A stretch of 19,602 bases of DNA from Dermabacter sp. p3-SID358 (GTDB lineage Bacteria; Actinomycetota; Actinomycetes; Actinomycetales; Dermabacteraceae). The stretch covers positions 1-19,602 of the forward strand of contig NZ_JALXOZ010000025.1 of the NCBI RefSeq assembly GCF_025147465.1, in the 5' to 3' direction. Both the position numbers and the translations under genes were made by a program. Of this stretch, positions 1 through 19,602 are shown in pieces; within the stretch, counting starts at the first letter, position 1; the number at the start of each line of letters is the position of its first letter. A model generated the notes under the pieces. It did no database searches. It was given only the letters and a program-made list of their open reading frames with translations, and had not been told where the DNA came from.

Positions 1-14
1 CTGGGGAGAGCTTT

Positions 15-620: not shown

Positions 621-713
621 TTTTCTCCTCGGGAAAACTGACAACGAAAGTACGGCTGCGAATGACCGCGCCTATAGAGTAATGCACACCACTAGGAGAA
701 GGACCTTTTTCAC

Positions 714-2072: not shown

Positions 2073-2109
2073 CATACTTGATCGCGAATACACACACGAG
2101 GGGATGGTT

Positions 2110-2868: not shown

Positions 2869-2928
2869 GCTAAGTGGCGTCGGAACTGCTCGCCCACCTC
2901 TCGCACGCACCCGAGGAGGCTCTGCCAC

Positions 2929-3828: not shown

Positions 3829-4586
3829 GGGCGGTGAATTCGGAAGCGGCAGGCCTCGTGACGACGCGGCGGGCGTTGCTGGCCTCGCTCTTGGGGATTG
3901 CCGGCATCGCCGTGGTCAAGCTAAGGCCCGCGACCGCGACGAAGCCGGGCATGCAGGTCGTTGCTGATCCCGCGGAGCGCTACGCCGACGCGATCGAGTG
4001 GCTCGTGAAGCACGATCTGTTCGATCCAGCTCGCGAGGGAACGTTCCTCCCGGGCGCCGATGTGACGCGTGAGGACGCCGCGATCATGCTGTACCGTCTC
4101 GCTGGCGCTCCTGAGCGTGACGGTCTCGACCTCGAACCGTATCGCGACATTGAGAAGACGGCTCGCAGCTATCGCGAAATCATGTGGATGCGCGGCCAAG
4201 CGGTGTTCTTCGGCGAGTACGACGCGACTTTTCAGCCGACCCAGCCCGTGACGCGAGCGGAGGGGTGTTCGTTCCTCGCGCGGCTGCTTCGTGGCGTACT
4301 TGCCGCGCACCTCGCGGCGGGAGGCTCCGCTGTTGCGCCCGAGATCGCGAGCTTTCGCGACGTCTCCAAGGGACACCCGCGCTTTGCGGATATCGAGTGG
4401 GCTCGTGCAGTGGGACTGCTCGGGCGCGACCTCACGCTCAGTGAAGCCGAGAACTCGGGCGAGCGACAGGCCGACGCTTCCGCCCCTCTCGTCGATGCCG
4501 AGCTTCGGCCAGACGCTACTCTCATGAGGGGCGAGTTCGCGCGGTTGCTTCAACGCGCGAACGCCCTATTCGACGACGCCCACTAG
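3816..4586 (+). CDS. Exported SLH (S-layer homology) domain protein
   Basis: A 256-residue protein with a twin-arginine-like N-terminus (TTRRALLASLLGIAG, residues 16-30), followed by SLH-type repeats. The clearest repeats read FLPGADVTREDAAIMLYRLAG (residues about 77-97, split as FLPGADVTRED and AAIMLYRLAG) and FQPTQPVTRAEGCSFLARLL (139-158). A weaker third copy lies near LRPDATLMRGEFARLLQRA (230-248). SLH repeats usually bind pyruvylated secondary cell-wall polymers and hold proteins on the surface. Almost nothing but the repeats is present, so this may be a wall-binding partner or scaffold rather than an enzyme. I chose GTG 3816 because AAGGAG (3805-3810) sits five bases before it. ATG 3825, overlapping the stop of the SGNH gene as ATGA, is the alternative and would remove only three residues. 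It probably works with the SGNH hydrolase just upstream. Confidence 0.78.
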   Translation: MDGMRAVNSEAAGLVTTRRALLASLLGIAGIAVVKLRPATATKPGMQVVADPAERYADAIEWLVKHDLFDPAREGTFLPGADVTREDAAIMLYRLAGAPERDGLDLEPYRDIEKTARSYREIMWMRGQAVFFGEYDATFQPTQPVTRAEGCSFLARLLRGVLAAHLAAGGSAVAPEIASFRDVSKGHPRFADIEWARAVGLLGRDLTLSEAENSGERQADASAPLVDAELRPDATLMRGEFARLLQRANALFDDAH

Positions 4587-4619
4587 ACGGGCACCCCAAC
4601 CTCGACTAAGGAGTGACAC

Positions 4620-5336
4620 GTGGCAGACATGGCGGCGACGCTCGACGGGTGCGCGAAGGGAACATCTCTCGCGCGTGCGAAAGCGATCCTTCTCGATTCC
4701 GATGGGACCCTCGTCGACTCAACTCGAAGCGTCGAGGCAAGCTGGGACACCCTCCTCGGTGACGAGGGTGCGGGACGCTTTGAAAAGCACTATCACGGGC
4801 AACCGGCCAGGCGAGTATTGCGCCTCGCGATGCCCGACATCAGCGAGGAGAGGCTCGAGGAGCTTTTCACCAAAGTCGAGGGATACGAAATTGCGAGCGC
4901 GGGCGATGTCGAGGCATTCGACGGGACCGCGCGTTTCCTCGGCGAACTCGAAGAGGCAAAGGCTGCGCTTTCGCGCGAATGCTGGGCGATAGCGACGAGC
5001 TGCACGCTTCCACTCTTCGAGGCGCGCTACCGGCCCCTTGGGCTCCCGTTCCCCACAACCCTCGTGACCGCTGATCAGGTCACGCACGGCAAGCCGGATC
5101 CCGAGCCCTACCTCCTCGCGGCTCGGAGACTCGGGGTCGATGCGGCGGAGTGCATCGTCGTCGAAGATGCGCCGGGCGGCCTCGCCTCAGCCCGTGCTGC
5201 GGGAGCGTTCGTCGTGAGTGTTCTCAACAGTGCGAGTGCGGAGACCGTCGGCCCCCTTGCCGATCTCGTGATTCCCTCGCTCGCGGATGTCTCGATCGAG
5301 GCCTGCGAAGGGGAGCTCGTGCTGCGCGCACGGTGA
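4620..5336 (+). CDS. HAD superfamily sugar-phosphatase (DOG/Gph-like)
   Basis: A 238-residue cytoplasmic phosphatase of the haloacid dehalogenase superfamily, closest in layout to 2-deoxyglucose-6-phosphate or glycerol-phosphate phosphatases and beta-phosphoglucomutase-like proteins. Motif I is LLDSDGTLVDS with nucleophile Asp26 and acid/base Asp28. Motif II is AIATSC (Thr126/Ser127). Motif III is HGKPDPEPY with Lys158. Motif IV is VVEDAPGGLASARAAG with Glu182 and Asp183 for magnesium. The helical cap occupies about residues 35-105. The GTG start at 4620 is supported by AAGGAG (4608-4613) six bases upstream. It begins 33 bases after the SLH gene and may be in the same transcript. The sugar-phosphate substrate cannot be read from sequence. 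Confidence 0.88.
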   Translation: MADMAATLDGCAKGTSLARAKAILLDSDGTLVDSTRSVEASWDTLLGDEGAGRFEKHYHGQPARRVLRLAMPDISEERLEELFTKVEGYEIASAGDVEAFDGTARFLGELEEAKAALSRECWAIATSCTLPLFEARYRPLGLPFPTTLVTADQVTHGKPDPEPYLLAARRLGVDAAECIVVEDAPGGLASARAAGAFVVSVLNSASAETVGPLADLVIPSLADVSIEACEGELVLRAR

Positions 5337-5391
5337 GCGCCACGCGGCGATTATCGGTTTTTGAACTGCTTGGTCAATTAGGGTGATACAT

Positions 5392-6111
5392 ATGAGCGAA
5401 ATAGTGTTCCGATCCGACGTCACGGTCGACCTTGTGAGGTCGCAGGCTTCCGATTCCGATGTCATCTTTGCCGCGCGGGTCTCGACCCAGGGGGAAAAGT
5501 CCAAGAGCGTCGTGGGCACCGATGCTTCCGATCGCGACAAGGGCCTCATCAATTACCTCATGCGTGACCGTCATGGCTCGCCGTTCGAGCACAACAGCTT
5601 CACGTTCTACGTCGAAGCGCCGATCTTCGTGTTCCGCGAGTTCATGCGCCACCGGATCGCGTCCTATAACGAAGAATCAGGCCGTTACCGCCAAATGCGC
5701 CCGATTTTCTACGTGCCCGGCCCCGAGCGCAAGCTCGTCCAGAAGGGCAAGCCCGGCGCCTATGACTTTTACGAGGGCAGCCCCGAGCAGCACGACATCG
5801 TGACGAAGGCGTACAAGGCGCAGTGCGAGAGCGCGTATGCCGCTTATCTCGAGATGCTCGAGGCCGGCGTTGCACGCGAGGTCGCACGCGGCGTTCTGCC
5901 CCTCACGCTGTTCAGTTCGATGTACGTGACCGTCAATGCCCGCAGCATGATGAACTTCCTGTCGCTGCGCACCAAGCGTGAAGGCTCGCACTTCCCGTCG
6001 TTCCCGCAGCGCGAGATCGAGATGGTCGCCGAAAAGATCGAAGAGTTCTTCGCCGAGGCGATGCCCCTCACCTACGAAGCGTTCAACGCGGGCGGTCGGG
6101 TGGCGCCGTGA
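5392..6111 (+). CDS. thyX: Flavin-dependent thymidylate synthase ThyX
   Basis: ThyX methylates dUMP to dTMP using methylene-tetrahydrofolate, FAD and NADPH, and makes a ThyA enzyme dispensable. The 239-residue product carries the ThyX signature RHRxxSxNExSxRY as RHRIASYNEESGRY (residues 86-99), which binds FAD and dUMP. HGSPFEHNSFTFYV (61-74) and the C-terminal segment NARSMMNFLSLR (182-193) are also conserved in the family. Length is typical. The frame extends to GTG 5383, but ATG 5392 is preferred because AGGGTGAT lies immediately upstream and matches ribosome-binding spacing. The stop overlaps the GTG of dapA (GTGA at 6108-6111), so thyX and dapA are translationally coupled, an arrangement common in actinobacteria. 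Confidence 0.97.
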   Translation: MSEIVFRSDVTVDLVRSQASDSDVIFAARVSTQGEKSKSVVGTDASDRDKGLINYLMRDRHGSPFEHNSFTFYVEAPIFVFREFMRHRIASYNEESGRYRQMRPIFYVPGPERKLVQKGKPGAYDFYEGSPEQHDIVTKAYKAQCESAYAAYLEMLEAGVAREVARGVLPLTLFSSMYVTVNARSMMNFLSLRTKREGSHFPSFPQREIEMVAEKIEEFFAEAMPLTYEAFNAGGRVAP

Positions 6112-7025
6112 GTCAAGAAGCACCGGTATTTGGACGTCTCGGCGTCGCTATCGTCACGCCCTTTACCGAGGATCTCGAGAAGGTCGATCACGAGGCTCTC
6201 GCCGGCCTCGCACGCCATCTCGTCGACGAAGGCCACGATCTCATCGTCGCGAACGGCACGACGGGCGAATCGCCCACGACGAGCGATGAGGAAAAGCTCG
6301 CGATTCTCGCGACCGTGCGCGAGGCAGTTGGCGCGGATGTCACCCTCCTCGCGGGGGCGGGCACGAACGATACGCGTCACTCTGTCGCGCTTGCGCGCGC
6401 GATCGAAGAGGGGGGCAATGCTGATGGCCTCCTGCTCGCAACCCCGTACTACTCCAAGCCCACGCAGCGCGGCCTGATCGCGCACACGCTCGAGATCGTC
6501 AACGCCGTCGACCTGCCGGCGATGCTCTACGACATTCCCGGTCGCTCAGGCATCCCTATCGAATACGAGAGCGCCGTCGAACTGTCCCAGCACCCGAACA
6601 TCGTTGCCCTCAAGGAAGCCAAGGGGGACATGCACGAAGCCTCGAAGCTCATCCGTGACACGGGCCTCGATATCTACTCCGGTGAAGACGCTCTCAACCT
6701 TCCGTGGCTCGCGATCGGCGCGGTTGGTACGGTTTCGGTCACGAGTCACCTTACGGGGCGGCTCGACCGTCTCATGTTTGACGCCCTCGAACGGTGCGAC
6801 CTCGCGCTCGCGCAAAGGCTCCACGCGTCGCGCATCGACTTTGTTGACGCGATCATGAACCAGGGCCCAGGAACGATGGCGATCAAAGAAGCCCTTAAAC
6901 ACCTCGGCGTGCTTCCGCACGCTGGCTGCCGCGCCCCGCTCGGAACGGTCGAGCCGGAGGTCGCGGCGCGCATCCACGCCGCCGTAGACGCCTACCAGAG
7001 CGTCCTCGCGCAGCACACCAGCTGA
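6108..7025 (+). CDS. dapA: 4-hydroxy-tetrahydrodipicolinate synthase
   Basis: DapA condenses pyruvate with aspartate semialdehyde, the first step committed to diaminopimelate and lysine. The 305-residue product shows the family landmarks in order: GTTGESPTTSDEEK (residues 50-63, with the Thr-Thr of the proton relay), GTNDTRHSVAL (86-95), YYSKPTQRGL (114-123), YDIPGRSG with Tyr141, and VALKEAKGD with the Schiff-base Lys169. A TIM-barrel fold is expected. The GTG start at 6108 overlaps the thyX stop by four bases and gives the normal N-terminus (FGRLGVAIVTPF); its own ribosome-binding site is poor, which fits translational coupling. RNase J starts 15 bases after its stop. With dapB upstream, two steps of the lysine pathway are in this window. 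Confidence 0.97.
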   Translation: MSQEAPVFGRLGVAIVTPFTEDLEKVDHEALAGLARHLVDEGHDLIVANGTTGESPTTSDEEKLAILATVREAVGADVTLLAGAGTNDTRHSVALARAIEEGGNADGLLLATPYYSKPTQRGLIAHTLEIVNAVDLPAMLYDIPGRSGIPIEYESAVELSQHPNIVALKEAKGDMHEASKLIRDTGLDIYSGEDALNLPWLAIGAVGTVSVTSHLTGRLDRLMFDALERCDLALAQRLHASRIDFVDAIMNQGPGTMAIKEALKHLGVLPHAGCRAPLGTVEPEVAARIHAAVDAYQSVLAQHTS

Positions 7026-7040
7026 AGAATTTAGGACACT

Positions 7041-8732
7041 GTGACTACACCCTTTTCCACGACACTCGGGACCCCGCCACAACTGAAGAACAAGACACTA
7101 CGTGTGACCCCGCTCGGCGGTCTCGGCGAGGTTGGCCGAAACATGACCGTATTCGAGTATGAGGGCCGGCTTCTCATCGTCGATTGCGGCGTTCTCTTCC
7201 CCGAAGAAGCCCAGCCGGGCGTCGACCTTATCCTCCCGGACTTCCGCTCGATCGAGGATCGCCTTGATGACGTTGCCGCGATCGTGCTCACACACGGCCA
7301 CGAAGACCACATCGGTGCAGTTCCCTACCTTCTGCGCCTCAAGCCGGACATCCCGCTCGTCGGTAGCCAGCTGACCCTCGCCTTTGTCGAGGCGAAGCTC
7401 CGTGAGCATCGGCTCAAGCCGTACACGCTCGCTGTCAAGGAAGGCGACGTCGAGAAATTCGGCGCTTTCGAATGCGAGTTCGTTGCCGTGAACCACTCGA
7501 TCCCAGACGCGCTCGCGGTCGCGATCCGTACCGAGGCTGGCACGGTTTTGCATACGGGCGACTTCAAGATGGACCAGCTCCCGCTCGATGGTCGCCTGAC
7601 GGACCTTCGTGCCTTCGCACGCCTCGGTGAAGAGGGCGTGGATCTCTTCCTCGTCGACTCGACAAACGCCGAGGTCCCCGGCTTCACCGTCAAGGAGCGC
7701 GAGATCGGTCCCGTGCTCGATAATCTTTTTGCGCGCGCTCAACGCAAGATCGTTGTCGCGAGCTTTTCGAGCCACGTCCACCGCGTTCAGCAGGTGCTCG
7801 ATTCGGCGCACGCGCACGGCCGCAAGGTGGCGTTCGTGGGGCGCTCGATGGTGCGCAACATGACCATCGCTGCCGATATGGGCTACCTCAATGTTCCCCC
7901 GAACACGCTCGTGGACCTCAAGAAGGCCGACGACATTCCGGATCACAAGATCGTGTACATGTGCACGGGCAGCCAGGGCGAGCCGATGGCCGCGCTCGGG
8001 CGTATCGCGAACCGCAACCACCGCGTCGAAGTCGGCGAGGGGGACGTCGTGATTCTTGCGTCCTCGCTCATCCCGGGCAATGAGAACGACGTGTTTCGCG
8101 TGATGAATGGCCTCATGGAACTCGGGGCCGAGGTCGTGCACCAGGCGAACGCGCGCGTGCACGTCTCGGGGCACGCGAGTGAGGGTGAGTTGCTGTACTG
8201 CTACAACATTCTGCGCCCGAAGAACGTGATGCCCGTGCACGGCGAGGTGCGCCACCTCATCGCGAACGGGAAGATCGCGCAGTCCTCAGGTATCCCTCGC
8301 GAGAACATCGTGCTCGCGAAGGACGGCACGGTCGTCGACCTCAAAGACGGCGTCGCACGTGTTGTCGGCGAGGTCGAGGTTGGGTACGTGTATGTGGACG
8401 GTTCGAGTGTGGGCGAGGTAAGCGAGGCCGATCTTAAGGACCGCCGTATCCTCGCAGAAGAGGGCTTCATTTCCCTGTTCGCCGTGGTCAATAGTGAAAC
8501 CGGCGAGCTCATTGCGGGGCCAGAGATCCACTCGCGAGGCATCGCCGAGGACGACGAGGTGTTTGAGCGCATCAAGCCCGACGTCATCAAGGCGCTGCAC
8601 AAGGCGATCGAGGACGAGAAGGGGCACGACACGTATCAGCTTCAGCAAGCGATGCGTCGCGTGATGGGGCGTTTCCTCTCGCAACGCCTTCGCCGCCGCC
8701 CGATGATCATCCCGGTTGTCGTCGAGGCTTAG
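7041..8732 (+). CDS. rnj: Ribonuclease J
   Basis: A 563-residue metallo-beta-lactamase/beta-CASP ribonuclease with 5'-to-3' exonuclease and endonuclease activity in mRNA decay and rRNA maturation. The zinc motif HxHxDH is THGHEDHIGA, with His85, His87, Asp89 and His90. Further landmarks are VNHSIPDA (about 150-157), HTGDFKMD, the beta-CASP segments SFSSHVHRVQQ and GRSMVRNM, CTGSQGEP, HVSGHASEGEL (His374, His378) and MPVHGEVRHL (His400). The C-terminal domain of about 110 residues is typical of the family. The start is GTG 7041, 15 bases after dapA, with a modest AGGA at 7033-7036. It is probably the last gene of the thyX-dapA unit, because ftsK downstream seems to have its own promoter. Confidence 0.96.
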   Translation: MTTPFSTTLGTPPQLKNKTLRVTPLGGLGEVGRNMTVFEYEGRLLIVDCGVLFPEEAQPGVDLILPDFRSIEDRLDDVAAIVLTHGHEDHIGAVPYLLRLKPDIPLVGSQLTLAFVEAKLREHRLKPYTLAVKEGDVEKFGAFECEFVAVNHSIPDALAVAIRTEAGTVLHTGDFKMDQLPLDGRLTDLRAFARLGEEGVDLFLVDSTNAEVPGFTVKEREIGPVLDNLFARAQRKIVVASFSSHVHRVQQVLDSAHAHGRKVAFVGRSMVRNMTIAADMGYLNVPPNTLVDLKKADDIPDHKIVYMCTGSQGEPMAALGRIANRNHRVEVGEGDVVILASSLIPGNENDVFRVMNGLMELGAEVVHQANARVHVSGHASEGELLYCYNILRPKNVMPVHGEVRHLIANGKIAQSSGIPRENIVLAKDGTVVDLKDGVARVVGEVEVGYVYVDGSSVGEVSEADLKDRRILAEEGFISLFAVVNSETGELIAGPEIHSRGIAEDDEVFERIKPDVIKALHKAIEDEKGHDTYQLQQAMRRVMGRFLSQRLRRRPMIIPVVVEA

Positions 8733-8774
8733 CGACGCGGATTTTTGCAGTTACCACTGCGAAGTCAGCTCCCT

Positions 8775-8787
8775 GTGTGATTCACAC
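8775..8787. repeat. Perfect 13-base operator-like palindrome upstream of ftsK
   Basis: GTGTGA-T-TCACAC is a perfect inverted repeat with six-base arms around one central base, lying between rnj and ftsK and about 16 bases upstream of the putative -35 box of ftsK. The symmetry and position suggest a binding site for a dimeric regulator, but no regulator is identified. It lacks the spacing of a classical CRP site. There is no following T-tract, so it is not a terminator. Confidence 0.4.
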
Positions 8788-8802
8788 GCCGGGGCTGGCC
8801 TC

Positions 8803-8832
8803 GTGACGTTCGTACCCTTCGGCGGGTAGATT
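8803..8832 (+). promoter_or_regulatory. Putative promoter giving a leaderless ftsK transcript
   Basis: GTGACG at 8803-8808 (four of six matches to TTGACA) and TAGATT at 8827-8832 (fits the actinobacterial TANNNT -10 pattern) are separated by 18 bases. Only seven bases separate the -10 from the ftsK ATG at 8840, so transcription should begin at or one base before the start codon. This fits the absence of a usable ribosome-binding site. Inferred from sequence only. Confidence 0.45.
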
Positions 8833-8839
8833 GTGGAGT

Positions 8840-11731
8840 ATGGCGACACGTACGACTTCCCCCGCACGTGCGTCGAAAGGAACCTCCCGAGGCTCGTCCT
8901 CGGGCTCGTCGCGCACGAAAGGTGCGCCCACGGATCCCTCGACGCTTCCCCTCCCGGTGCGCGCTTTGCGCGTCGGGTACCTCGGCGTTGCCCGCGCGGT
9001 TGGCGGCTTCGTTCGCGGCATCGGCATTCAGCGCTGGGAGGTCGCCTACGAAGAGCGGCGCGATGGCTTCGCTCTTTTCTTGAGCATTCTCGCGCTCATT
9101 CTCATCGTTCCCGAATGGTTCCAGGTGCGCGAATGGGGCTTTGGCGCGATTCATACGGTCGCTGCGAGCTCGTTCGGCGTGATCGCCGTGCTGCTTCCCC
9201 TCCTTCTAGGGTTGTGGTCGCTTCGGATGTTCCGCAGGCCCGATCTTGTTCACGCGAACGGACGCCTTTTCGCGGGACTACTCATGCTTGTGTGTGCGCT
9301 CTGTACAGTCGCATCCGTGAGCGCGCGCATTCCCACGCCGTCCAATGGTGTTGACGCCCTCGCGCGCGGTGGCGGCGTGTGCGGCTATCTCGTCGCGGCG
9401 CCCCTCGCGAATGTCCTTCCTGACTGGGTGATCGTCACTCTCGGAGTCGTCCTCGCCCTGTTCTCCGTTCTCGTGCTCACCGCTACGCCGCTCGGCCAAG
9501 TGGGCTCGCGTCTCGCGGGGGTCTACGGGGCTCTCGTGGGCAGGGGAGAGCATGAAGAAGCGGAGCGCGAGGCCTTCGGCTTGGACCGACGCCAGCAGGC
9601 TCTCCACGCTGCCGAGGGCAACGCCGAGGGCAGCCCAACGAAGACTCGGCGCATGAGCGATCTGTTCCGCCGCAAGAATCGCCGGTCGTCAAGCGACACC
9701 GAGAATCTCGAGGCCGGCGTCGATCACGAAGCCTTTGGCTACGAAGGCGATGGCGCGTATCGCCAGAGCGCCGAGAGTGAGCAGGCCGAGACGACGACGC
9801 TTCCGCGCCCGCAGAAGAAACCGCTCGCGAAGAAGACAGATGCCGCCAGTGCAAACGCACCCGGCGCGAAAGGCTCTGACCCCTACGATTACCTCGAAGC
9901 GGAAAACAGTAGGAAGAAGGAGTTTCCGACGGCTGCCAGGCAAACGTCGGACCTGGAAAACGCCCCCACCGTGCCGGTGCCGAGCGTGAGCGCTGCGGAG
10001 CAGACCCGCGAGCTGACCCCGCCCAAGGGCGAAGGTGTCAAGGGACCGCACGTGCAGCCCGAACTTCAGGTTGAGACCGCCTACCCGCTCCCGAGCCCCG
10101 ACATGCTCGTGGCCGGCCCGCCCGCGAAGGCTCGCTCCGAAGCGAACGATCGCGTTGTCGCGGCACTCGGCGAGGTGTTCGAGCAGTTTGGCGTGAACGC
10201 CGAGGTCGTTGGCTTTTCCCGCGGCCCGACCGTGACGCGCTACGAGGTCGAGCTCGGCCCCGGCACGAAGGTCGAGAAGGTCACGGCGCTGTCCAACAAC
10301 ATCGCGTACGCGGTCGCGAGCGCCGATGTGCGCATCATTTCGCCGATCCCCGGCAAGAAGGCGATCGGTATCGAGATTCCGAACGCGGACCGCGAAACCG
10401 TTGCGCTCGGGGATGTTCTTCGTAGCGGTGTCGCGACCGCCAACGAACACCCCATGGTGATGGGACTCGGTAAGGATGTCGAAGGCGGATTCGTGATTGC
10501 GAATCTCGCGAAGATGCCCCACTTGCTTGTTGCGGGCGCGACCGGTGCCGGTAAGTCAAGCTTTGTGAACTCGATGATCACCTCAATCCTCATGCGTGCA
10601 ACGCCGGAGGAAGTGCGCATGGTACTCGTTGATCCGAAGCGCGTTGAGCTGACGATCTACGAGGGGATCCCGCATCTCATCACCCCCATCATCACGAACC
10701 CCAAGAAGGCTGCGGAGGCGCTCGAGTGGGTTGTGAAGGAGATGGACCACCGCTACGACGATCTCGCCGAGTACGGTTTCAAGCACATCGATGACTTCAA
10801 TAAGGCCGTGCGCGCGGGCCAAGTGAGCCCCCCGCCGGGAAGTGAGCGAGTGCTCGCGCCCTACCCGTACCTCCTCGTGGTCGTTGACGAGCTTGCCGAC
10901 CTCATGATGGTCGCCCCGCGAGACGTCGAGGCGTCGATCCAGCGCATCACGCAGCTTGCGCGCGCTGCCGGCATTCACCTTGTGCTCGCAACCCAGCGAC
11001 CCTCCGTCGACGTCGTCACGGGCATCATCAAAGCGAATGTTCCCTCCCGCCTCGCGTTCGCGACGAGTTCCCTCCAGGATTCGCGCGTCATTCTCGATAC
11101 TCCCGGCGCGGAGAAGCTCATCGGCCAGGGCGACGCGCTCTTTCACCCCATGGGCAAGGCGAAGGCTATGCGTGTGCAGGGCTCGTGGGTCAACGAGTCC
11201 GAGATTCACGCAGTCGTCGACTACGTGAAGGGGCAGGCGAAGCCGCAGTACCGCGAGGACGTGCAGCAGGTCGCCAAGAAGAAGCAGATCGACGATGACA
11301 TCGGCGGCGATCTTGACGTGCTGCTTCAGGCGGCCGAACTCGTCGTCACCACGCAGTTCGGCTCCACCTCGATGCTTCAGCGCAAGCTCCGAGTGGGCTT
11401 CGCGAAGGCGGGGCGCCTCATGGACCTTCTCGAGTCACGCGAGATCGTGGGGCCGAGCGAGGGCTCGAAAGCTCGCGATGTGCTCGTGCGTCCCGAGGAT
11501 CTCCCGCGCGCGATCGCGCGTATCAAGGGAGAGGACACGGACCTGTATGAGGATGCGCAGGACGCTTCCCACGCGGGTTCCGGTTCCGGGGCGGGGGAGT
11601 CCGACGCCTCCTCGGCCCACGATCGCTACTCGGATGATCCGTTGGACCACTCCTCGCGTGAGGTGAGCCCCGAGTATTACGACAACGACGATGCCGACGG
11701 CGAAGACGCCTGGCAGCTCACGGGCCGCTAA
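8840..11731 (+). CDS. ftsK: FtsK/SpoIIIE family DNA translocase
   Basis: A 963-residue septal DNA pump that moves chromosome ends across the division site and activates XerCD recombination. A Ser/Thr/Lys-rich N-terminus (about 1-35) precedes roughly four membrane segments (about 76-94, 104-128, 142-162, 180-217). A polar, charged linker (about 220-420) follows. The motor contains Walker A GATGAGKS at residues 566-573 and Walker B VVVDELADL with Asp683-Glu684. The C-terminal gamma winged-helix domain (about 820-885, with TTQFGSTSMLQRKLRVGFAK) reads KOPS-type DNA sites, and an acidic Ser/Asp-rich tail follows (about 895-963). The frame opens at TTG 8831; I chose ATG 8840. GGAG is only one base from that ATG, so a classical ribosome-binding site is lacking and leaderless translation is likely. 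pgsA follows 37 bases later. Confidence 0.94.
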   Translation: MATRTTSPARASKGTSRGSSSGSSRTKGAPTDPSTLPLPVRALRVGYLGVARAVGGFVRGIGIQRWEVAYEERRDGFALFLSILALILIVPEWFQVREWGFGAIHTVAASSFGVIAVLLPLLLGLWSLRMFRRPDLVHANGRLFAGLLMLVCALCTVASVSARIPTPSNGVDALARGGGVCGYLVAAPLANVLPDWVIVTLGVVLALFSVLVLTATPLGQVGSRLAGVYGALVGRGEHEEAEREAFGLDRRQQALHAAEGNAEGSPTKTRRMSDLFRRKNRRSSSDTENLEAGVDHEAFGYEGDGAYRQSAESEQAETTTLPRPQKKPLAKKTDAASANAPGAKGSDPYDYLEAENSRKKEFPTAARQTSDLENAPTVPVPSVSAAEQTRELTPPKGEGVKGPHVQPELQVETAYPLPSPDMLVAGPPAKARSEANDRVVAALGEVFEQFGVNAEVVGFSRGPTVTRYEVELGPGTKVEKVTALSNNIAYAVASADVRIISPIPGKKAIGIEIPNADRETVALGDVLRSGVATANEHPMVMGLGKDVEGGFVIANLAKMPHLLVAGATGAGKSSFVNSMITSILMRATPEEVRMVLVDPKRVELTIYEGIPHLITPIITNPKKAAEALEWVVKEMDHRYDDLAEYGFKHIDDFNKAVRAGQVSPPPGSERVLAPYPYLLVVVDELADLMMVAPRDVEASIQRITQLARAAGIHLVLATQRPSVDVVTGIIKANVPSRLAFATSSLQDSRVILDTPGAEKLIGQGDALFHPMGKAKAMRVQGSWVNESEIHAVVDYVKGQAKPQYREDVQQVAKKKQIDDDIGGDLDVLLQAAELVVTTQFGSTSMLQRKLRVGFAKAGRLMDLLESREIVGPSEGSKARDVLVRPEDLPRAIARIKGEDTDLYEDAQDASHAGSGSGAGESDASSAHDRYSDDPLDHSSREVSPEYYDNDDADGEDAWQLTGR

Positions 11732-11768
11732 CGCGCGAAAGACGCCGCTAAAGAGAAGGGAAACACCC

Positions 11769-12362
11769 ATGAGCGCTTCCGATACCCCGCGCGTTCCGCT
11801 GTGGAATATCGCGAACATCCTCACCGTGACGCGCATGGTCATGGTGCCTATCTTCGTGGTCGTAGCCGCGCTCTACCACGAGGACATCGCCATGAGGTGG
11901 GTCATTGCCGGGATCTTCGTGCTCGCAATGGTCACGGACTTCGTCGACGGCTACCTCGCGCGCTCTCGGAGCCTCATTACCGATTTTGGCAAGATTATGG
12001 ACCCGATTGCCGACAAGGCGATGACGGGCGCCGCGCTCATCATGCTTTCGGTATGGCAGTACGTGCCGTGGTGGATTACAGTGCTCATTCTCGTGCGCGA
12101 GATCGGCATTACGGTCATGCGCTTCACGATCTTGAAATACGGAGCCCTTCCCGCGAACTTCAGCGGAAAGGCGAAGACGATGATGCAGTCTATCGGGATC
12201 ACCTTCTGCCTCATGCCCTTTGAGCTGATGTGGCCTCCCGCGTGGTGGATCGGCATCACGCTCATCGCCATCGCTCTTGTGCTCACGCTCTGGTCGGGAC
12301 TTCGCAATGTCAACGACGGGCTGCGCCTGCGCCGCGAGGCACTCGCGCAGAAAGCGGCGTAA
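11769..12362 (+). CDS. pgsA: CDP-diacylglycerol-glycerol-3-phosphate 3-phosphatidyltransferase
   Basis: A 197-residue inner-membrane enzyme of the CDP-alcohol phosphatidyltransferase family. It probably forms phosphatidylglycerol phosphate, the precursor of phosphatidylglycerol and cardiolipin. The signature DxxDGxxARx8GxxxDxxxD is complete: Asp57, Asp60, Gly61, Ala64, Arg65, Gly74, Asp78 and Asp82. Hydrophobic segments lie at about 17-36, 43-58, 85-118, 137-155 and 159-176. Start ATG 11769 has AGAAGGG about eight bases upstream and removes a non-homologous extension reaching back into ftsK. The location between ftsK and cinA is the usual actinobacterial context for pgsA. Other members of this family use inositol phosphate or other alcohols, so the exact acceptor is inferred from context and the LWNIANILTVTR N-terminus typical of PgsA. 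Confidence 0.92.
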   Translation: MSASDTPRVPLWNIANILTVTRMVMVPIFVVVAALYHEDIAMRWVIAGIFVLAMVTDFVDGYLARSRSLITDFGKIMDPIADKAMTGAALIMLSVWQYVPWWITVLILVREIGITVMRFTILKYGALPANFSGKAKTMMQSIGITFCLMPFELMWPPAWWIGITLIAIALVLTLWSGLRNVNDGLRLRREALAQKAA

Positions 12363-12367
12363 CGAGG

Positions 12368-12868
12368 ATGGACACGCCGCGTGAGGAGCTGGCGTCGGCC
12401 CGCGCCCTCCTTGCGATGTGCGAAGAGAGGGGTATGAGCCTCGCGACGGCTGAGTCGCTCACGGGCGGGATGCTCGTCGCGCGCCTCGTGGATGTTCCAG
12501 GCGCTAGCAGAGTCGTCCAGGGTGGTGTGTGCACGTACAGTTTCGAAGCGAAGGCGTCTATTTTGGGGCTAGACCTTGCGGACCTGCAGGCAAAGGGAGC
12601 CGTGCGCGCCGAGGTCGCGAGCAGCATGGCTCGAGCCGCGCGCCGCGTGTACGAGGCAGATGTTGCCTTTGCGACGACCGGAGTGGCCGGGCCCGGGAAT
12701 GACGATTACGGCAACCCGGAGGGGCTCGCCTACATCGCCGTGAGTACGCCAAGTCGCGATCTCGTGCGTGAAGTACGCCTCACGGGCTCGCGACCGGCGA
12801 TCCGTGCGGGTGTTGTGGACGACGCGATCACCCTCGGCATTGAGGCTCTGACCAGCGCAAATGTGTAA
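12368..12868 (+). CDS. pncC: CinA C-terminal-type nicotinamide-nucleotide amidohydrolase
   Basis: A 166-residue stand-alone version of the CinA C-terminal domain, which deamidates nicotinamide mononucleotide to nicotinic acid mononucleotide in NAD recycling. It contains AESLTGGMLVARL (residues 28-40), with Ser30 the expected nucleophile and Leu replacing the commoner Cys in AESCTGG. VPGASRVVQGGVCTYSFEAK (43-62), with conserved Lys62, and TGVAGPG near residue 105 are also present. The competence-type N-terminal domain of full CinA is absent, as in many actinobacteria. It starts five bases after pgsA; GAGG directly abuts the ATG, so the ribosome-binding spacing is poor and translation is probably coupled to pgsA. 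In actinobacterial annotation this gene is often simply called cinA. Confidence 0.9.
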   Translation: MDTPREELASARALLAMCEERGMSLATAESLTGGMLVARLVDVPGASRVVQGGVCTYSFEAKASILGLDLADLQAKGAVRAEVASSMARAARRVYEADVAFATTGVAGPGNDDYGNPEGLAYIAVSTPSRDLVREVRLTGSRPAIRAGVVDDAITLGIEALTSANV

Positions 12869-13108
12869 CTGGCGCGTTGGGCCGGTGTGGGAAACCTGAA
12901 AAGCGAGCGTGTGTGAGGCCGTAGGATGGCGGAACAACGAGGAACCCTCGTGCGTTGAACAGACGTGAATACGTACAAGAATGCGGGAGCAGGTGCTCCC
13001 GGGCAACGAAAATGGGTGACGGCCACGGGGCCTCGCCCGGCGTCCGTGCTGGGCCGCGAGTCGGCAGTACCGCGGCGCGGAACACTGACAAGGAAGGGAG
13101 AATCTCGC
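12869..13108 (+). promoter_or_regulatory. Structured intergenic region and leader of clgR
   Basis: This 240-base gap contains no convincing gene. TAGGAT at 12922-12927 fits a TANNNT -10 box, without a clear -35. Just downstream is an inverted repeat ACGAGG-AAC-CCTCGT (12937-12951). Next comes a strong hairpin CGGGAGC-AGGT-GCTCCCG (12984-13001) with a seven-base-pair GC-rich stem and a four-base loop. The clgR frame stays open back to 12965, but that extension crosses the hairpin and does not resemble the family. No T-tract follows the hairpin, so it is not a standard terminator. If the -10 is right, the transcript has a leader of about 175 bases. Confidence 0.4.
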
Positions 13109-13420
13109 ATGGTGCTCTTCCGCCAGGAACTCGGCGGCGTTTTGCGTGAGGCACGCCGCCGCCAGGGCAAGACTCTGCGTCAGGTATCGGCCGATGCGCG
13201 AGTCTCGCTCGGCTACTTGAGCGAAATCGAGCGCGGCCAAAAGGAAGCCTCGAGTGAACTGCTCGCCTCCGTGACCGAAGCTCTCGGTTACCCCATGTCG
13301 GTGATTCTCCGCGAAGTTGCAGATCGCGTGGCACTCGAAGAGGGCATCGTTATTCCCGACATCGTTCCTGCCGAACTCGAGCGGGGCGTCCAGGGCGCCG
13401 AATACGCACTGGCGCGGTAG
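13109..13420 (+). CDS. clgR: XRE-family transcriptional activator ClgR
   Basis: A 103-residue DNA-binding protein with one helix-turn-helix domain (about residues 8-70). The segment LRQVSADARVSLGYLSEIERGQKEASSELL (24-52; key residues VSLGYLSEIERGQKEASSE) is the hallmark of ClgR, the actinobacterial activator of clp protease genes. ClgR also controls some DNA-repair genes in corynebacteria and is itself degraded by ClpP. The C-terminal part, rich in Val, Ile and Glu, ends in YALAR, with no Ala-Ala degron. ATG 13109 has GGAAGGGAGAA about eight bases upstream and matches the normal family N-terminus (FRQELGGVLREAR). Its position between cinA and DUF3046-recA is conserved in actinobacteria. The long structured leader suggests control beyond the promoter. 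Confidence 0.9.
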   Translation: MVLFRQELGGVLREARRRQGKTLRQVSADARVSLGYLSEIERGQKEASSELLASVTEALGYPMSVILREVADRVALEEGIVIPDIVPAELERGVQGAEYALAR

Positions 13421-13425
13421 TCCAC

Positions 13426-13653
13426 GTGAGGCGAAGCGAGTTTCGCGAGCTCGCCGCCTATGTCTTTGGTGCCGAACTCGCGCATACGTACTGTCATGAA
13501 TTCGCGCTTGTGACGTGCGGGAACTTAACCCCGAACGAGGCGATTGAGGCGGGCTACCCCGTTAAAGAAGTGTGGCACGCGCTGTGTGATGACATGGATG
13601 TGCCTGTGCACATGCGCTGGGAGGTCCCGCCCGAGGCGCGTCCGCGCGCGTGA
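13426..13653 (+). CDS. DUF3046 family protein
   Basis: A 75-residue protein of the actinobacterial DUF3046 family, of unknown function. Typical features are the start MRRSEFRELAAYVFGAELA, the middle LTPNEAIEAGYPVKEVWHALCD with conserved Trp and Cys, and MDVPVHMRW near the end. The GTG start at 13426 is five bases after the clgR stop, so the two genes are probably co-translated. Family members are nearly always found just upstream of recA, as here. No membrane segment or known catalytic motif is seen. Confidence 0.87.
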   Translation: MRRSEFRELAAYVFGAELAHTYCHEFALVTCGNLTPNEAIEAGYPVKEVWHALCDDMDVPVHMRWEVPPEARPRA

Positions 13654-13872
13654 GCGTGTGGTGGCGAAAGGCGTGACAAGAATCGAACACGCGTGCGCAT
13701 AAACGTGTAAATCGAACAGGTGTTCGTTTACGATGGTGTTGTTCGGCCTCCACGGTGCGTGTGCATCCACACCTGTGCCGGGGTCGAGTTTAAATGTCTC
13801 ACCCCCGTTTACCGTTGGAAGGGTCAAGCGAGAGGCCACCTCGTAGCGGGGTGACAAACGAAAGGAACCGCC
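13654..13872 (+). promoter_or_regulatory. recA promoter and leader region
   Basis: A 219-base gap without a gene. It holds a LexA operator (13713-13726), a degenerate second site (13684-13697) and a possible -10 TACGAT at 13729-13734 directly after the operator, so LexA bound there would cover the promoter. The leader from there to the recA ATG is about 130 bases and includes a small hairpin with GTGTG/CACAC arms. GAAAGGAA just before ATG 13873 is the ribosome-binding site. Confidence 0.55.
13713..13726. promoter_or_regulatory. LexA (SOS) box upstream of recA
   Basis: CGAACAGGTGTTCG has perfect CGAAC/GTTCG half-sites around a four-base centre. It matches the Gram-positive and actinobacterial LexA consensus GAAC-N4-GTTC. 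It sits 146 bases before recA and abuts a candidate -10 box, the expected layout for repression relieved by DNA damage. Confidence 0.88.
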
Positions 13873-14961
13873 ATGGCAGCTGCCGCCAAGGATCGCGATA
13901 AGTCGCTCGAAAACGCGCTCGCACAGATTGACCGTCAGTTCGGCAAAGGCTCGATTATGCGCCTTGGCGACGACACACGCCCGCCCGTCGAAGTCGTTCC
14001 CACGGGGTCGGTCGCACTTGACGTCGCGCTCGGTATCGGTGGTCTTCCCCGCGGTCGTGTCGTCGAGATCTACGGCCCGGAGTCCAGTGGTAAAACCACG
14101 GTTGCGCTCCACGCGATTGCAAACGCGCAGCGGGCGGGCGGCATTGCGGCCTTCATCGATGCGGAGCACGCCCTCGATCCGGAGTATGCGAAGAAGCTCG
14201 GCGTCGATATCGATGCACTTCTCGTGTCGCAGCCCGACACCGGCGAGCAGGCTCTCGAAATTGCCGACATGCTCGTGCGCTCGGGCGCGATCGACGTCCT
14301 CGTCGTCGACTCCGTCGCGGCACTCACGCCAAAGGCCGAAATCGAAGGCGAGATGGGCGACTCCCACGTGGGCCTCCAGGCGCGCCTCATGTCGCAAGCT
14401 CTTCGCAAGCTTACCGGTGCGCTCTATTCGAGTGGCACCACCGCTATCTTCATTAACCAGCTTCGCGAGAAGATCGGTGTGTTCTTCGGCAGCCCCGAAA
14501 CCACCACGGGTGGCAAAGCACTCAAGTTCTATGCTTCGGTGCGCATGGACATTCGTCGAATCGAGACCCTCAAGCAGGGCACCGATGCGGTTGGCAATCG
14601 TACTCGCGTCAAGATCGTGAAGAACAAGATGGCTCCGCCCTTCAAGCAGGCCGAGTTCGACATCCTTTATGGCGAGGGTATTTCTCGCGAAGGTGGCCTC
14701 ATCGATCTCGGCGTTGAAAACGGCATCGTGCGCAAGTCCGGCGCGTGGTTTACCTACGATGGCGATCAGCTCGGCCAGGGTAAGGAAAACGCGCGCCAGT
14801 TCCTCAAAGACAACCCGGATCTCGCCGCCGACATCGAACAGAAGATCCTCATGAAACTCGGCATTGGCCAGTACGCGGATGAGACCGCTAAGAAGGCCGC
14901 TGCCGAAGCGCCCGTGGGGGATGGCGAATTCGTAGACGATGACGTCCCCGCGCAAATCTGA
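13873..14961 (+). CDS. recA: Recombinase RecA
   Basis: A 362-residue ATP-dependent strand-exchange protein that also promotes LexA self-cleavage in the SOS response. Walker A is GPESSGKT at 68-75. Glu98 in DAEHALD corresponds to the catalytic glutamate. Walker B is VLVVDS with Asp146. The DNA-binding loop L2 covers [20 protein letters not shown] (195-214). [10 protein letters not shown] (154-163) precedes loop L1. The tail is acidic (GEFVDDDVP). No intein is present, unlike some mycobacterial RecA proteins. ATG 13873 is supported by AAAGGAA upstream. LexA control is expected from the box at 13713-13726. recX overlaps the last 23 bases. Confidence 0.98.
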
Positions 14962-15619
14962 GCCTCTTGGCCAAGCTCGGGCGGCGCAAGAGGATTGGCG
15001 CGCGGGCGTCGTTGAAGAGCTCGCCGAGCACGTTGCCGCCATCGAAGCGGGGGAAGCCGCACCTGGGGAGGGCAGCAACCCGTGTCGAGGTGGAGTATTC
15101 CGCGATCACGAAACGGAAAAGGTCGTCGTCAAGGAATGCCGGTATGTGCTCGGCCTGCTCGCCCACCGTCAGCGCAGTGAGGCGGAGATTCGCGCGAGGC
15201 TCGCGCAGCGCGTGCATGAAGTTGATGTTCTTGAAGAGGTCATGCGGCGTCTCGATACCGCTGGGCTCATCGATGACGAAGGCTTTGCGCGCGCCTGGGT
15301 AGAGCAGCGGCGCGAGAGCAAACTCCTCGGCACAGCTGCTTTGCGTCGAGAACTCGAAAATAAAGGCGTCGGTGCGCCCGATATCGACACCGTTCTCGCG
15401 GAGAGCGCTCCGTATGACAGCGAAAAGGAGCGGTGTCAGATTTTCGCGCGCGAACGGCTCGCGAAGGAGCTGCGCAAGAGTGGCGGGGCCGAGAACCTCA
15501 ATCGTGGGGCGGCGCTAAGGCGCATCGGGGGCGCGCTCGCGCGGCGCGGATACTCCGAGAACCTCACGCTCTTCGTCGTTAATCGCGAGCTCGATGCGGC
15601 AGGAGTCACCTGGTTATAG
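14939..15619 (+). CDS. recX: RecX, regulator of RecA
   Basis: A 226-residue inhibitor and modulator of RecA filaments. After a variable N-terminal extension of about 60 residues come the three-helix repeats: [23 protein letters not shown] (66-88), the signature [22 protein letters not shown] (103-124), [14 protein letters not shown] (131-144), and a last repeat near [17 protein letters not shown] (190-206). ATG 14939 lies inside the recA end with no good ribosome-binding site, so translation is probably coupled to recA, which keeps RecX low relative to RecA. A later in-frame start would still keep the domain. Orientation and overlap are standard for actinobacteria; the miaB-type gene often found next is replaced here by a surface-protein gene. 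Confidence 0.92.
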
Positions 15620-15733
15620 GGCGCGTGGCGGCATCGATGGGTGTCTAGCGGGGCAAGAGCAAGCGTGATGGGAGCGCTCGACCCAACCGCTGGACAATGT
15701 GAGCTATGTCGCAAAATAGCGAGCATGCTTGAT

Positions 15734-15763
15734 GTGTCACACCGTTGTCTATGGCGGTACTAT
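15734..15763 (+). promoter_or_regulatory. Putative promoter of the adhesin-like gene
   Basis: TACTAT at 15758-15763 fits a TANNNT -10 box. GTGTCA at 15734-15739 is a weak -35 candidate, 18 bases upstream. The predicted transcript starts about 35 bases before ATG 15805. A short palindrome GTGTCACAC overlaps the -35. The rest of the 185-base gap after recX shows no terminator or small gene. Confidence 0.35.
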
Positions 15764-16095
15764 GTGGGCGTAGTCAGCGACCCTTCTCCCTAGAAAGTAG
15801 TTCCATGAGATCCCCGGACACCCTTCGCCCTGCCTTTGTGCGGGTTTTCTTTGCGTTTCTGCTCTCGTGCATTCTTGTCGTTCAGTCCCTCCTCGGTGGC
15901 GGCATGGCGGCTCTCGCAGAGCCTGCAACACCGAAAGTTGAAATTCAGCTCGAGCGCGTCACGGAAGACGAGCGCCCCACCGGATCCCAAAATCTGTATC
16001 GCATTACGGTGAAGTGTGCTTACTTGAATAGCCAAGAGACAGAGGATAACTGCCTCGAAGGTGGGCGAGTAGAGATCGGTGGAGTCCCAGAAGGT

Positions 16096-16098
16096 TAG
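16096..16098 (+). other. In-frame TAG interrupting the adhesin frame
   Basis: The codons read GAA GGT TAG GGT TTC. Both sides are in the same frame, with coding character continuing at once (GFEIVGNDH after the stop). A single substitution from a Tyr, Gln, Trp, Lys, Glu, Leu or Ser codon would explain it. The next base is G, not the C that favours readthrough. Confidence 0.85.
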
Positions 16099-18750
16099 GG
16101 TTTCGAAATTGTAGGTAATGACCATCTCATGGGCAAAAACGATGGTGAACGGACTTTTGGGTTGGACACAATCGGCAAAGAGGCGCGTGTGATCGAGACT
16201 TATGTCAAGGTTACGCCGCCGAACTATGTCACGCCGAACAACACCTCGTGGGACTTGAAAGCCACTCTTGAATCGGAGAGCCCTCAAGGGGGACACTGGG
16301 AGACCGGGGTTGTGAAGACGACCGCGGTTGCCGCGCAAAAACTTAATGTTAAGAAGAATGCACTACAGGAATCAACCTGGATTGGCGATACGGTCTACTG
16401 GGAGATTGCGACCGAGATCGATAATGACAAGTATGGCGACCTGGGCATTTATCGGCCTTCGACAATCACGTATACGGATGTGCTTCCCGTCGGGTTTGAC
16501 CCCGTTGCCATGCGGTACGAGGGCAAACCGTTCACTGACTACACATTCGACAAAGCTACGCGAAAACTGACGTGGACTCTTGACGGACTCCACGAAGAAG
16601 AACGTCGAAGCCACGCCGTCCCCAAGTTCGAAATTCACACAAAAGTTCTGCCCACCGCGTGCGAGGGGGATCCGGCGCCTTGCACGAAAGAGTCCAAGAA
16701 CACAGTCGAGGCTCTCTCGACATACTCGAACAACGACACTTTAGATTCCAGCGCCCAAGCTACCGTGACGATGGCTGGGCGAAAATCAGGTGAGCTCGGG
16801 ACAATCAGCAAAACGTCGCAAGGGCTGCACATCAACGGAGGAGACGAAACCCGTAAGGGCATTTTTCGACGAAGCTATAAGCATGCCAAGGACTCCGATT
16901 GGGATCGCAGGGAGCTACGACAGTCGACAGAAGAATCCCGTGCAGCGGGTGATCCTCTTTCTGATGAGAAGCGATCGCTCGTCGCGGGCGCCTATACAGT
17001 GGATGTTGCTGTCATGCAGGGGGGAAGGCCTGTTAAAGACGGCAGTAATCTTCTCCCCTTGACGCAGAGCTATGAAGATGATGTGCCCTGCATGGATCAG
17101 GGATTCGTCGAGGAAGGGTTCCTCTTTAAGTCTCGCACCGACGGAAAGCTGTGTCAGGAGCCGGCTTTTCACGTGACGGCTGTTGAAATTAGTCGTGCCT
17201 CAGATGGCAGCCTTGACGTCGGCGACTTCGCGCCTGTCGCGGTGCTTAACGACAAAAGGGAAGTTCGCCTGACGAAGCTCGGGGAGGTCAAGGCTGAAGA
17301 AGACGGCAAAGAGGTGACTCAGGCTGTCGTGTACTCGGTTCCCGCGGATGCACGCGGTAAGGTGTCGCGAATTGTGGCAGCTCCCGGTCGTCCGCTTAAA
17401 GGGGTGAAGACGTGGAAGATGACGATTGGCGGCTTCGCTGAAGACTCTCTTCCCGGTGACGCGATCCTGCGTAACGAAAACGCGCGGGTCAAGGTTTGGG
17501 CTAAAGGTCAAACTGAGCCTTTTGGTGAGGGAACTTCACCGTTAGCAGAACTGCACGTGTTGGGAAGCTTGCACAATGTTCTAAAAAATAACCCAGTCGC
17601 GCTCGATATATTGCACCCGGTTGAGGGCCTCGGCGATGAAACGAAGACTGGGGTTCTGTGGAATCTAGAGTTCTCCTATCGCGGTAAGCAGAAGGAATCT
17701 GGCTATATTGTTGTGAGCGACCTCCTTCCGCGCGGTATGGAGCTGGTGACCGATCCCGATCAGCGCCTTCGAGACGGTGGAGAGTTTGAAGATGCTGTAG
17801 TGAAATACAAGATCGCTCATTTTGACCGGGGGGTTAAAGGAGAAAGAGAGCGCGAGGTCCAGACCACAGTCGTGGAGAATTACCGCGATGGCAGAACTCT
17901 CGTTCAATGGAAAATTCCCCATGAATGGGCAGTCGAAGAAGATGGCCAAGTAGATCTTGTTGGTAGATTCAAATTCATTACTCGCCCGCTTTATTTTGGA
18001 AACTTTCCCAACGACGCCTATGCGAATGATGCGACGGAGCCGAACCTGCGCTGTGCAGGAGAAAATGTTGAAGATTCATTCGACATCGATCGCGATCGTA
18101 GAACGAAGCAGGCATGTCATACCGCCGCTTACTGGTTCAACGTTCCTCCAGAGGATTCTCGCGCGCTAACCTTGGCGAAAGCGGTCAAAGGGCCGAACGA
18201 TGAATCGTTCGCATATACACCGAAGAAAGCTCTTGTTCCCGCTGAGGGCGGTGACGTCACGTATCGCGTTGAAGCGCTCAACTCTTCGGGTAAGCCGATG
18301 ACCGAGGTTGTGGCGTATGACGTGCTGCCGTATGAGGGTGATACGGGTGTGAGCTCGGATCTTTCTGGTGAGAACCGTGGATCTACGCAGTCGGCCAAGT
18401 TCACTCAGATGACGGAAGTTCCTGAGGGCGTGACGGTCTATTATTCGACCTCGGTGAATCCTTGCCGTCCCGAAGTGTTCGAAGCGCATAAGGGCAATAA
18501 GGGCTGCGACAATAATTGGTCGAGCACGGTTCCGAAGGATCCCGGCTCGGTGAAGGCGTTGAAGTTCGTCTATAAGGGTGAGTTGAACCCGAGGGAGACT
18601 TTGACCGTCGAGTTCGCTATGTCGGTACCGGCTATGAAAGCGACGACGGATGTCGTGTGGAACTCTGTTGCGGCTAAGGCGAGTTTCGCTGAGGGTGCTC
18701 CGTTGCCTGCGATCGAGGCGCCGAAGGTTGGTGCTGCTCGCGTGGTTGAG

Positions 18751-19602
18751 CCACAGTTTGCGGTGGAGAAGAAGCCTGGTAAGGCGACTGTCGGGGATGG
18801 TAAGTGGTCTTCTTCCTACACGGTGACAGTGAAGAACACGAGCCCGTTTGAAGGGACGTCCTCTCGCGTGACGGATACGCCGAAGCTTCCGAAGGGCTTC
18901 AAGTTCAATAAGGTCCTGGTTGATGGGGCTGAGGTGAACTTTAAGAATGGTTCGTTCCCTGTAACTGCTGGGGAAAAGCTTGCAGCGGGTAAGTCGAAGT
19001 CGTTCAAGGTTGTGGTCTCGGGCACGTACACGGCTTCTGAGGTTGATTGGGCTGCTGCCGCGAAGTGTGAGCCCGGTGATGGTGGTGCTTCGGGTGGTCT
19101 CGTGAATACGGTGGCCATGGCTGATGATTCCGATGGCCCCGATAACAACTCTGCTTGTAACCCGGTACCTGCGAAGTTCTCTGTGAAGAAGGAAGCCGTG
19201 GGTAAGGCGACTGCCAAGAACGGCACGTGGTCTTCGACCTATAAGGTGACGGTGAAGAATACCGGTGATGTGAAGGGCGTCTCGAAGCCGGTGAAGGATA
19301 CGCCTTCGGTTCCGGCTGGCTTTACGGTCACGAGCGCAAAGGTTGATAAGGGCGAGCCTGTGGAGCTCACTGATGGTTCGTTCACGGTGACTGAGGGCGT
19401 TGAACTTGACCCGGGTAAAGAGAAAGAGTTCACGGTTGTAATCTCGGGGTCGTTTGACCCTGCGAAGGTTGTGGAGTCTGAGGTTTCTGAGTGCGCCAGT
19501 GCGGGTGCTGCTGAGGGCGCTCATGGTTTCGTCAACAAGGTCACGATGGGTGGCGACACTGACGGCGCCAAGAACAACACGGCGTGCACCACGGTGGAGG
19601 GT
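18751..19602 (+). repeat. Two tandem Ig-like modules of about 140 residues
   Basis: Module 1 spans 18751-19170 (140 codons) and module 2 runs from 19171 to about 19593 (about 141 codons), continuing at the window edge. Shared positions include FxVxK, GKAT, WSSxYxVTVKNT, VxDTP, PxGF, GSFxVT, GKxKxFxVVxSG, VNxVxM and DGxxNNxAC. Each module has a conserved Cys pair 30-31 codons apart (codons at 19066/19156 and 19492/19585), likely a disulfide. Identity between copies is partial, so the duplication is not recent. More copies may lie past the edge. Confidence 0.78.

What the first reader, a model, noticed from the sequence alone, without database searches (positions are those of the whole stretch)
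15805..19602. Large secreted adhesin frame cut by one in-frame TAG
A signal-peptide start and more than 1,100 downstream codons lie in the same frame, separated only by TAG at codon 98. Everything else about the frame looks intact, so the stop is recent, an error, or tolerated. A surface antigen switched off by a point mutation (possible on/off variation between isolates) or a recoded stop would both be notable. Gene finders would split this into a 97-residue secreted peptide and an orphan cytoplasmic-looking protein, hiding the real gene.
Basis: seen in the sequence. Interest (0 to 1): 0.75.

Follow-up and report, generated by a model that had tools for sequence, protein, structure and literature searches.

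The report
Broken skin-bacterium surface adhesin gene
In a Dermabacter skin bacterium, the gene for a long wall-anchored surface protein is interrupted by a single premature stop that intact relatives lack, most likely an ordinary loss-of-function allele at a spot where surface-protein versions are swapped between strains and species.

Summary
ATG 15805 opens a 97-codon secreted start, TAG lies at 16096-16098, and the same frame stays open for 1,168 codons to the window end. The window is Dermabacter, 96.9% identical to D. hominis over 15.6 kb up to the end of recX. The gene is an allele of a fibrillar, sortase-anchored, adhesin-like protein with DUF11 (CLIPPER) stalk repeats. All 7 close relatives found (cluster representatives) run uninterrupted from the same kind of signal peptide; 5 of 7 reach an LPRTG anchor. 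TAG ends 5 of 15 neighbouring genes, so it is a normal stop. The downstream frame has no signal peptide, so no wall-anchored product is expected. Best reading: a real, recent nonsense allele. A base or assembly error is the main rival, since no reads can be seen. An identical 97-residue protein listed from a contig of another length (19,518) weakly favours a real stop. Recoding and a dedicated switch are not supported. The more interesting fact lies around it: adhesin alleles at this locus cross species lines. G001 and G002 differ at recA with dS 0.78 but at the adhesin with 0.12.

The parts
15805..16098 (+). First piece: 97 codons with an N-terminal signal peptide (hydrophobic core, AxA-type cleavage motif near residue 38), ended by TAG
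   Evidence: matches residues 1-96/97 of 6 of 6 intact relatives compared; signal peptide judged by eye, no predictor run
16096..16098 (+). In-frame TAG; the close relatives found are uninterrupted at the aligned place
16099..19602 (+). Downstream part of the same frame, 1,168 codons without a stop, open at the window end
16129..19602 (+). What a gene finder would call: 1,158-codon ORF from an internal ATG, no signal peptide, 3' end outside the window
   Evidence: listed as P0001
16327..16785 (+). CnaA-like Ig-fold module in the variable N-terminal region (residues 67-219 of the downstream ORF)
18760..19119 (+). DUF11 (CLIPPER) stalk repeat
   Evidence: Pfam PF01345, best stretch residues 878-997, whole protein 51.4 bits against cut-off 24.6; direct repeats with spacing 423-426 nt
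19177..19602 (+). Next DUF11-type stalk repeat, cut by the window end (start estimated from the repeat spacing)
   Evidence: three DUF11 stretches in the ORF; direct repeats
14939..15619 (+). recX: left border of the variable locus; near-identity to D. hominis G001 stops at 15614, at its end
   Evidence: RecX_HTH1 and HTH2 domains

Best explanation
The frame is one allele of a long, sortase-anchored, fibrillar adhesin-like surface protein of Dermabacter (signal peptide, variable N-terminal head, DUF11/CLIPPER stalk repeats, LPRTG anchor in complete relatives) that a real and fairly recent nonsense mutation at codon 98 has inactivated. Translation would give a 97-residue exported stub without head, stalk or anchor. 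Anything started again downstream would lack a signal peptide and stay in the cell. The cell would therefore lack this surface protein unless an intact allele comes in by recombination, which the locus evidently undergoes. Shown: the frame, the stop, intact relatives, ordinary use of TAG, allele exchange at the locus. Inferred: that the stop is real, absence of product, recency, adhesive function.
For: 7 of 7 close relatives (54-72% identical to the downstream ORF) are uninterrupted here and share the upstream signal peptide; P0002, P0003, P0004, P0006 and P0009 end in LPRTG. The pieces abut with exactly one codon between them in 4 of 6 relatives aligned. No further stop in 1,168 codons. DUF11 repeats and CnaA-like/CLIPPER fold matches. 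TAG terminates 5 of 15 window genes. The other genes look sound: against G001, 13 of 15 align full length without gaps, cinA over 169 of 170 and recX over 225 of 226 residues. An identical 97-residue protein is listed from a contig of 19,518 bases, not 19,602.
Against: No reads and no second isolate of this strain could be seen. The two contig lengths may be two assemblies of one sample. The stop-based age bound is weak: about 2.3% neutral substitutions per site would be needed for 3 expected further stops. The gene's 3' part is not in the window, so other lesions could precede or follow this one. The 7 relatives are cluster representatives (55 member sequences in all); the other members were not read.
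Confidence: 0.72

Rival explanations
1. Base-call or assembly error, or a chimera of coexisting strains: the organism has an intact gene and the stop is an artefact.
For: A single substitution in an otherwise clean frame is what an error would look like. The window ends in repeats where assemblies break: G001's contig C5 also ends inside this gene and two NCBI entries of the family are named 'partial'.
Against: 15 of 15 upstream genes are undamaged relative to G001. The same 97-residue product is listed from a contig of a different length, though perhaps from the same sample.
Confidence: 0.19
2. The stop is read through or suppressed (recoding, suppressor tRNA), so the full surface protein is still made.
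For: The long downstream frame is intact.
Against: Not conserved: the 7 close relatives are uninterrupted. TAG ends 5 of 15 genes here, including recX just upstream. RNA after the stop is not clearly more structured than shuffles (z -1.25; 22 of 200 shuffles at least as good). The host assembly is not held, so its tRNAs could not be searched; the window itself holds none.
Confidence: 0.04
3. Selected on/off variation: stop and intact alleles coexist in the population and are swapped by recombination, so that the stop acts as an OFF state.
For: The locus is highly allelic and exchanged: G001-G002 recA dS 0.78 against adhesin 0.12; window-G001 recA 0.17 against adhesin 1.46, a near-saturated value. 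The window is mosaic against P0002: 87 of 97 residues, then 43-83%, then 90-100% identity.
Against: Only one stop allele was found: the search with the 97-residue piece gave no other stub (1 hit of 2 candidates). No tandem repeat and only one weak inverted repeat near the codon, so no hallmark of a dedicated switch.
Confidence: 0.05

Closest known systems
Fibrillar adhesins with DUF11 (CLIPPER) stalks
   Same: Signal peptide, N-terminal head, tandem DUF11 repeats and, in complete relatives, an LPxTG-type anchor. DUF11 as adhesin stalk is described in PMC12617251 (passages read) and PMC9210967 (passages read).
   Different: This copy is cut at codon 98. No Pfam adhesive domain is recognised in its head or in P0002, P0003, P0006.
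Premature-stop alleles of internalin A (inlA) in Listeria monocytogenes
   Same: A surface protein of a Gram-positive truncated by nonsense mutations in natural isolates; 36.1% of 546 food isolates in PMC12427964 (abstract and outline read).
   Different: Different protein family and host; one instance only here, without population or phenotype data. In that abstract the effect of the stops on adhesion and invasion varied with clonal complex.
DUF11 protein of Dermabacter hominis (P0005) and D. vaginalis (P0007, G002)
   Same: Same locus after recX, same signal peptide type, same architecture.
   Different: Uninterrupted, and a different allele class (59% identical in the compared part).

Membership tests
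DUF11/CLIPPER fibrillar adhesin | Tandem DUF11 stalk domains | tested here: met
   PF01345 at 51.4 bits, cut-off 24.6, 3 stretches
DUF11/CLIPPER fibrillar adhesin | Signal peptide on the same polypeptide as the stalk | tested here: not met
   Separated by TAG in this copy; joined in 7 of 7 close relatives. So this is a broken allele of the family, not a working member
DUF11/CLIPPER fibrillar adhesin | Sortase motif and C-terminal anchor | not testable with these tools
   Lies outside the window; LPRTG with hydrophobic tail and basic end in G002 and in P0002, P0003, P0004, P0006, P0009
DUF11/CLIPPER fibrillar adhesin | Adhesive N-terminal domain | tested here: inconclusive
   No Pfam adhesive domain; CnaA-like module at residues 67-219; most of the rest of the head is modelled poorly (mean pLDDT of the model 53.5)
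DUF11/CLIPPER fibrillar adhesin | Intramolecular isopeptide triad | not tested
   Described for many DUF11 domains in PMC12617251; not checked here
Programmed stop-codon readthrough or recoding | Stop conserved among orthologues | tested here: not met
   7 of 7 close relatives uninterrupted
Programmed stop-codon readthrough or recoding | TAG reassigned in the genome | tested here: not met
   TAG ends 5 of 15 window genes, all 15 with matching frames in G001
Phase-variable surface gene | Switching element (simple repeat tract or invertible segment) at the lesion | tested here: not met
   0 tandem repeats in 15600-16800; one weak 15-nt inverted pair 477 nt apart in 15600-16400
Nonsense allele of a surface protein (inlA-like) | Single in-frame stop in an otherwise open frame, with intact alleles in circulation | tested here: met
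   met for the 1,168 codons held, the 3' part is unseen

The most novel reading that the evidence does not exclude
The recX-miaB interval of Dermabacter is a swap site for surface-adhesin alleles, crossing species lines by homologous exchange, and nonsense alleles such as this one are kept in circulation as reversible 'off' versions that recombination can replace, giving a skin commensal a slow population-level on/off and serotype-like system.
Probability: 0.12. Interest if true: 0.55.

Novelty: new member of a known kind. Interest (0 to 1): 0.3.

Why it matters
Taken alone, this is one more broken surface-protein allele of a commensal. It matters a little for annotation, because the gene would be filed as two unrelated ORFs. 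It matters more as a pointer to a hypervariable, interspecies-exchanged adhesin locus in a skin bacterium for which no adhesin study appeared in the listings I saw (20 of 109, 2 of 2 and 8 of 14 papers).

Tried and rejected
The plasmid collection gave no match. No solved structure matches the head by sequence. The AlphaFold model of the downstream piece is poor (mean pLDDT 53.5, pTM 0.29, 7 sequences), so only residues 67-219 are used from its fold matches; the top Foldseek rows over the whole model (integrins, macroglobulins) are set aside as generic Ig-type matches, and the VIA rows for residues 67-219 also include integrin and cohesin modules, so they show a fold and not a function. Promoter scan: 2 weak sites, both on the other strand, and one weak terminator-like hairpin at 15829-15844, uninformative. 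cinA was first given one base off and redone. Two searches scored only the candidates sharing most words (7,991 and 7,994). Dropped before counting relatives: P0001 (the window itself), P0008 (25% identity), and a weak match in G014 (E 9.4e-4 over 79 residues). P0005 was read but not put in the alignments. Gene names of the neighbours were first given by eye and then checked against NCBIfam and Pfam: recA, miaB, thyX, dapA, dapB, RNase J, pgsA and a CinA-type amidohydrolase pass a curated cut-off; recX passes in Pfam only; FtsK matches below the full-length cut-off; the SGNH-like gene has no Pfam match.

Paper searches for Dermabacter surface proteins: 'Dermabacter hominis' 109 papers with 20 listed, 'Dermabacter LPXTG' 2 papers, 'Dermabacter adhesin' 14 papers with 8 listed, 'recX miaB surface protein insertion' 1 paper. 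None of the listed titles or abstract openings treats this locus; only listings were seen. Two further searches gave the papers cited, and one on wall-anchored skin adhesins was not pursued.

Full report
What is there. ATG 15805 opens a frame with an evident signal peptide (by eye); TAG at 16096-16098 closes it after 97 codons. The same frame then stays open for 1,168 codons to the window's end. A gene finder would start a second ORF at ATG 16129, without any signal peptide.

Where it is. The window is from Dermabacter. Over window bases 1-15614 it is 96.9% identical to genome G001. One G001 contig has the same length (111,395) as the D. hominis NBRC 106157 contig found, so I take G001 to be that strain. 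G002 matches the D. vaginalis protein P0007 at 100% over 700 residues. The gene lies behind recA-recX. In G002, and from the two contig ends in G001, it is followed by miaB. In G004 about 40 bases separate the end of recX from the start of miaB. In G003 the recX match is partial and the stretch holds masked bases, but miaB follows closely. Neither G003 nor G004 has a DUF11 match (0 of 2) or a match to either piece. So the adhesin is an accessory gene at a fixed place. Among 29 related genomes, only G001 and G002 have a strong match; G014 has a weak one that I dropped.

The stop. The search with the downstream piece gave 8 hits: the window itself, 6 close relatives and one distant one (P0008, 25%). 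A search with the G002 protein gave one further close relative, P0009. All 7 close relatives, which stand for clusters of 55 sequences in all, run through this place from the same kind of signal peptide. In 4 of the 6 that I aligned, the two pieces flank exactly one codon; in the other 2 the offset is the same but the residues next to the stop do not align closely. Intact copies thus exist, including a close one, P0002 (87 of 97 residues identical in the first piece). None of the 7 starts downstream, within the length range that the search admits. TAG ends 5 of 15 genes in the window, so it is not reassigned. The RNA after it is unremarkable. No repeat tract or clear invertible element lies nearby.

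Real or error? I cannot see reads. The other 15 genes are undamaged compared with G001. The search with the 97-residue piece returned one identical 97-residue protein, on a contig listed as 19,518 bases long, while the window is 19,602. That hints at a second assembly with the same stop, though perhaps from the same sample. Zero further stops in 1,168 codons is compatible with a recent event, but only as a weak bound.

The locus. Between window and G001, recA has dS 0.17 and the adhesin downstream piece 1.46 (near saturation); between G001 and G002, recA has 0.78 and the adhesin 0.12. The identity profile of G001 against G002 goes from 75-91% upstream to 88-100% from the adhesin start on. Alleles have therefore moved between species; strong constraint alone is unlikely to explain it, since synonymous sites are close too. 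Against P0002 the window is mosaic: close at the start, 43-83% in the head, 90-100% in the stalk from residue 781. This exchange is the more interesting result and offers a natural route by which a broken allele could be replaced; that last point is inference.

Verdict. An ordinary nonsense allele of a known kind of surface protein, in the manner of inlA premature-stop alleles in Listeria (PMC12427964, abstract), at an unusually exchange-prone locus. Recoding and a dedicated on/off switch are not supported.

Noticed in passing
window 15614 onward; L019 against L010: Interspecies exchange of adhesin alleles behind recX: G001-G002 recA dS 0.78 but adhesin dS 0.12; window-G001 shows the reverse (0.17 against 1.46).
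   Followed up: partly
L020, L021: G003 and G004 lack the adhesin; in G004 about 40 bases separate recX from miaB.
   Followed up: yes
window 18760-19602; G001 C5 and C8 contig ends: Assemblies break inside the DUF11 repeats, so this gene is split or 'partial' in several records.
   Followed up: partly
G002:C1:1924695-1925003 and 48575-48922: G002 carries two further DUF11 matches in other long frames (2,166 and 1,138 aa); only the first passes the Pfam cut-off.
   Followed up: no
window 3825-4586: A protein with S-layer homology (SLH) domains (PF00395, 53.4 bits) sits between a gene without Pfam match and a HAD hydrolase.
   Followed up: no
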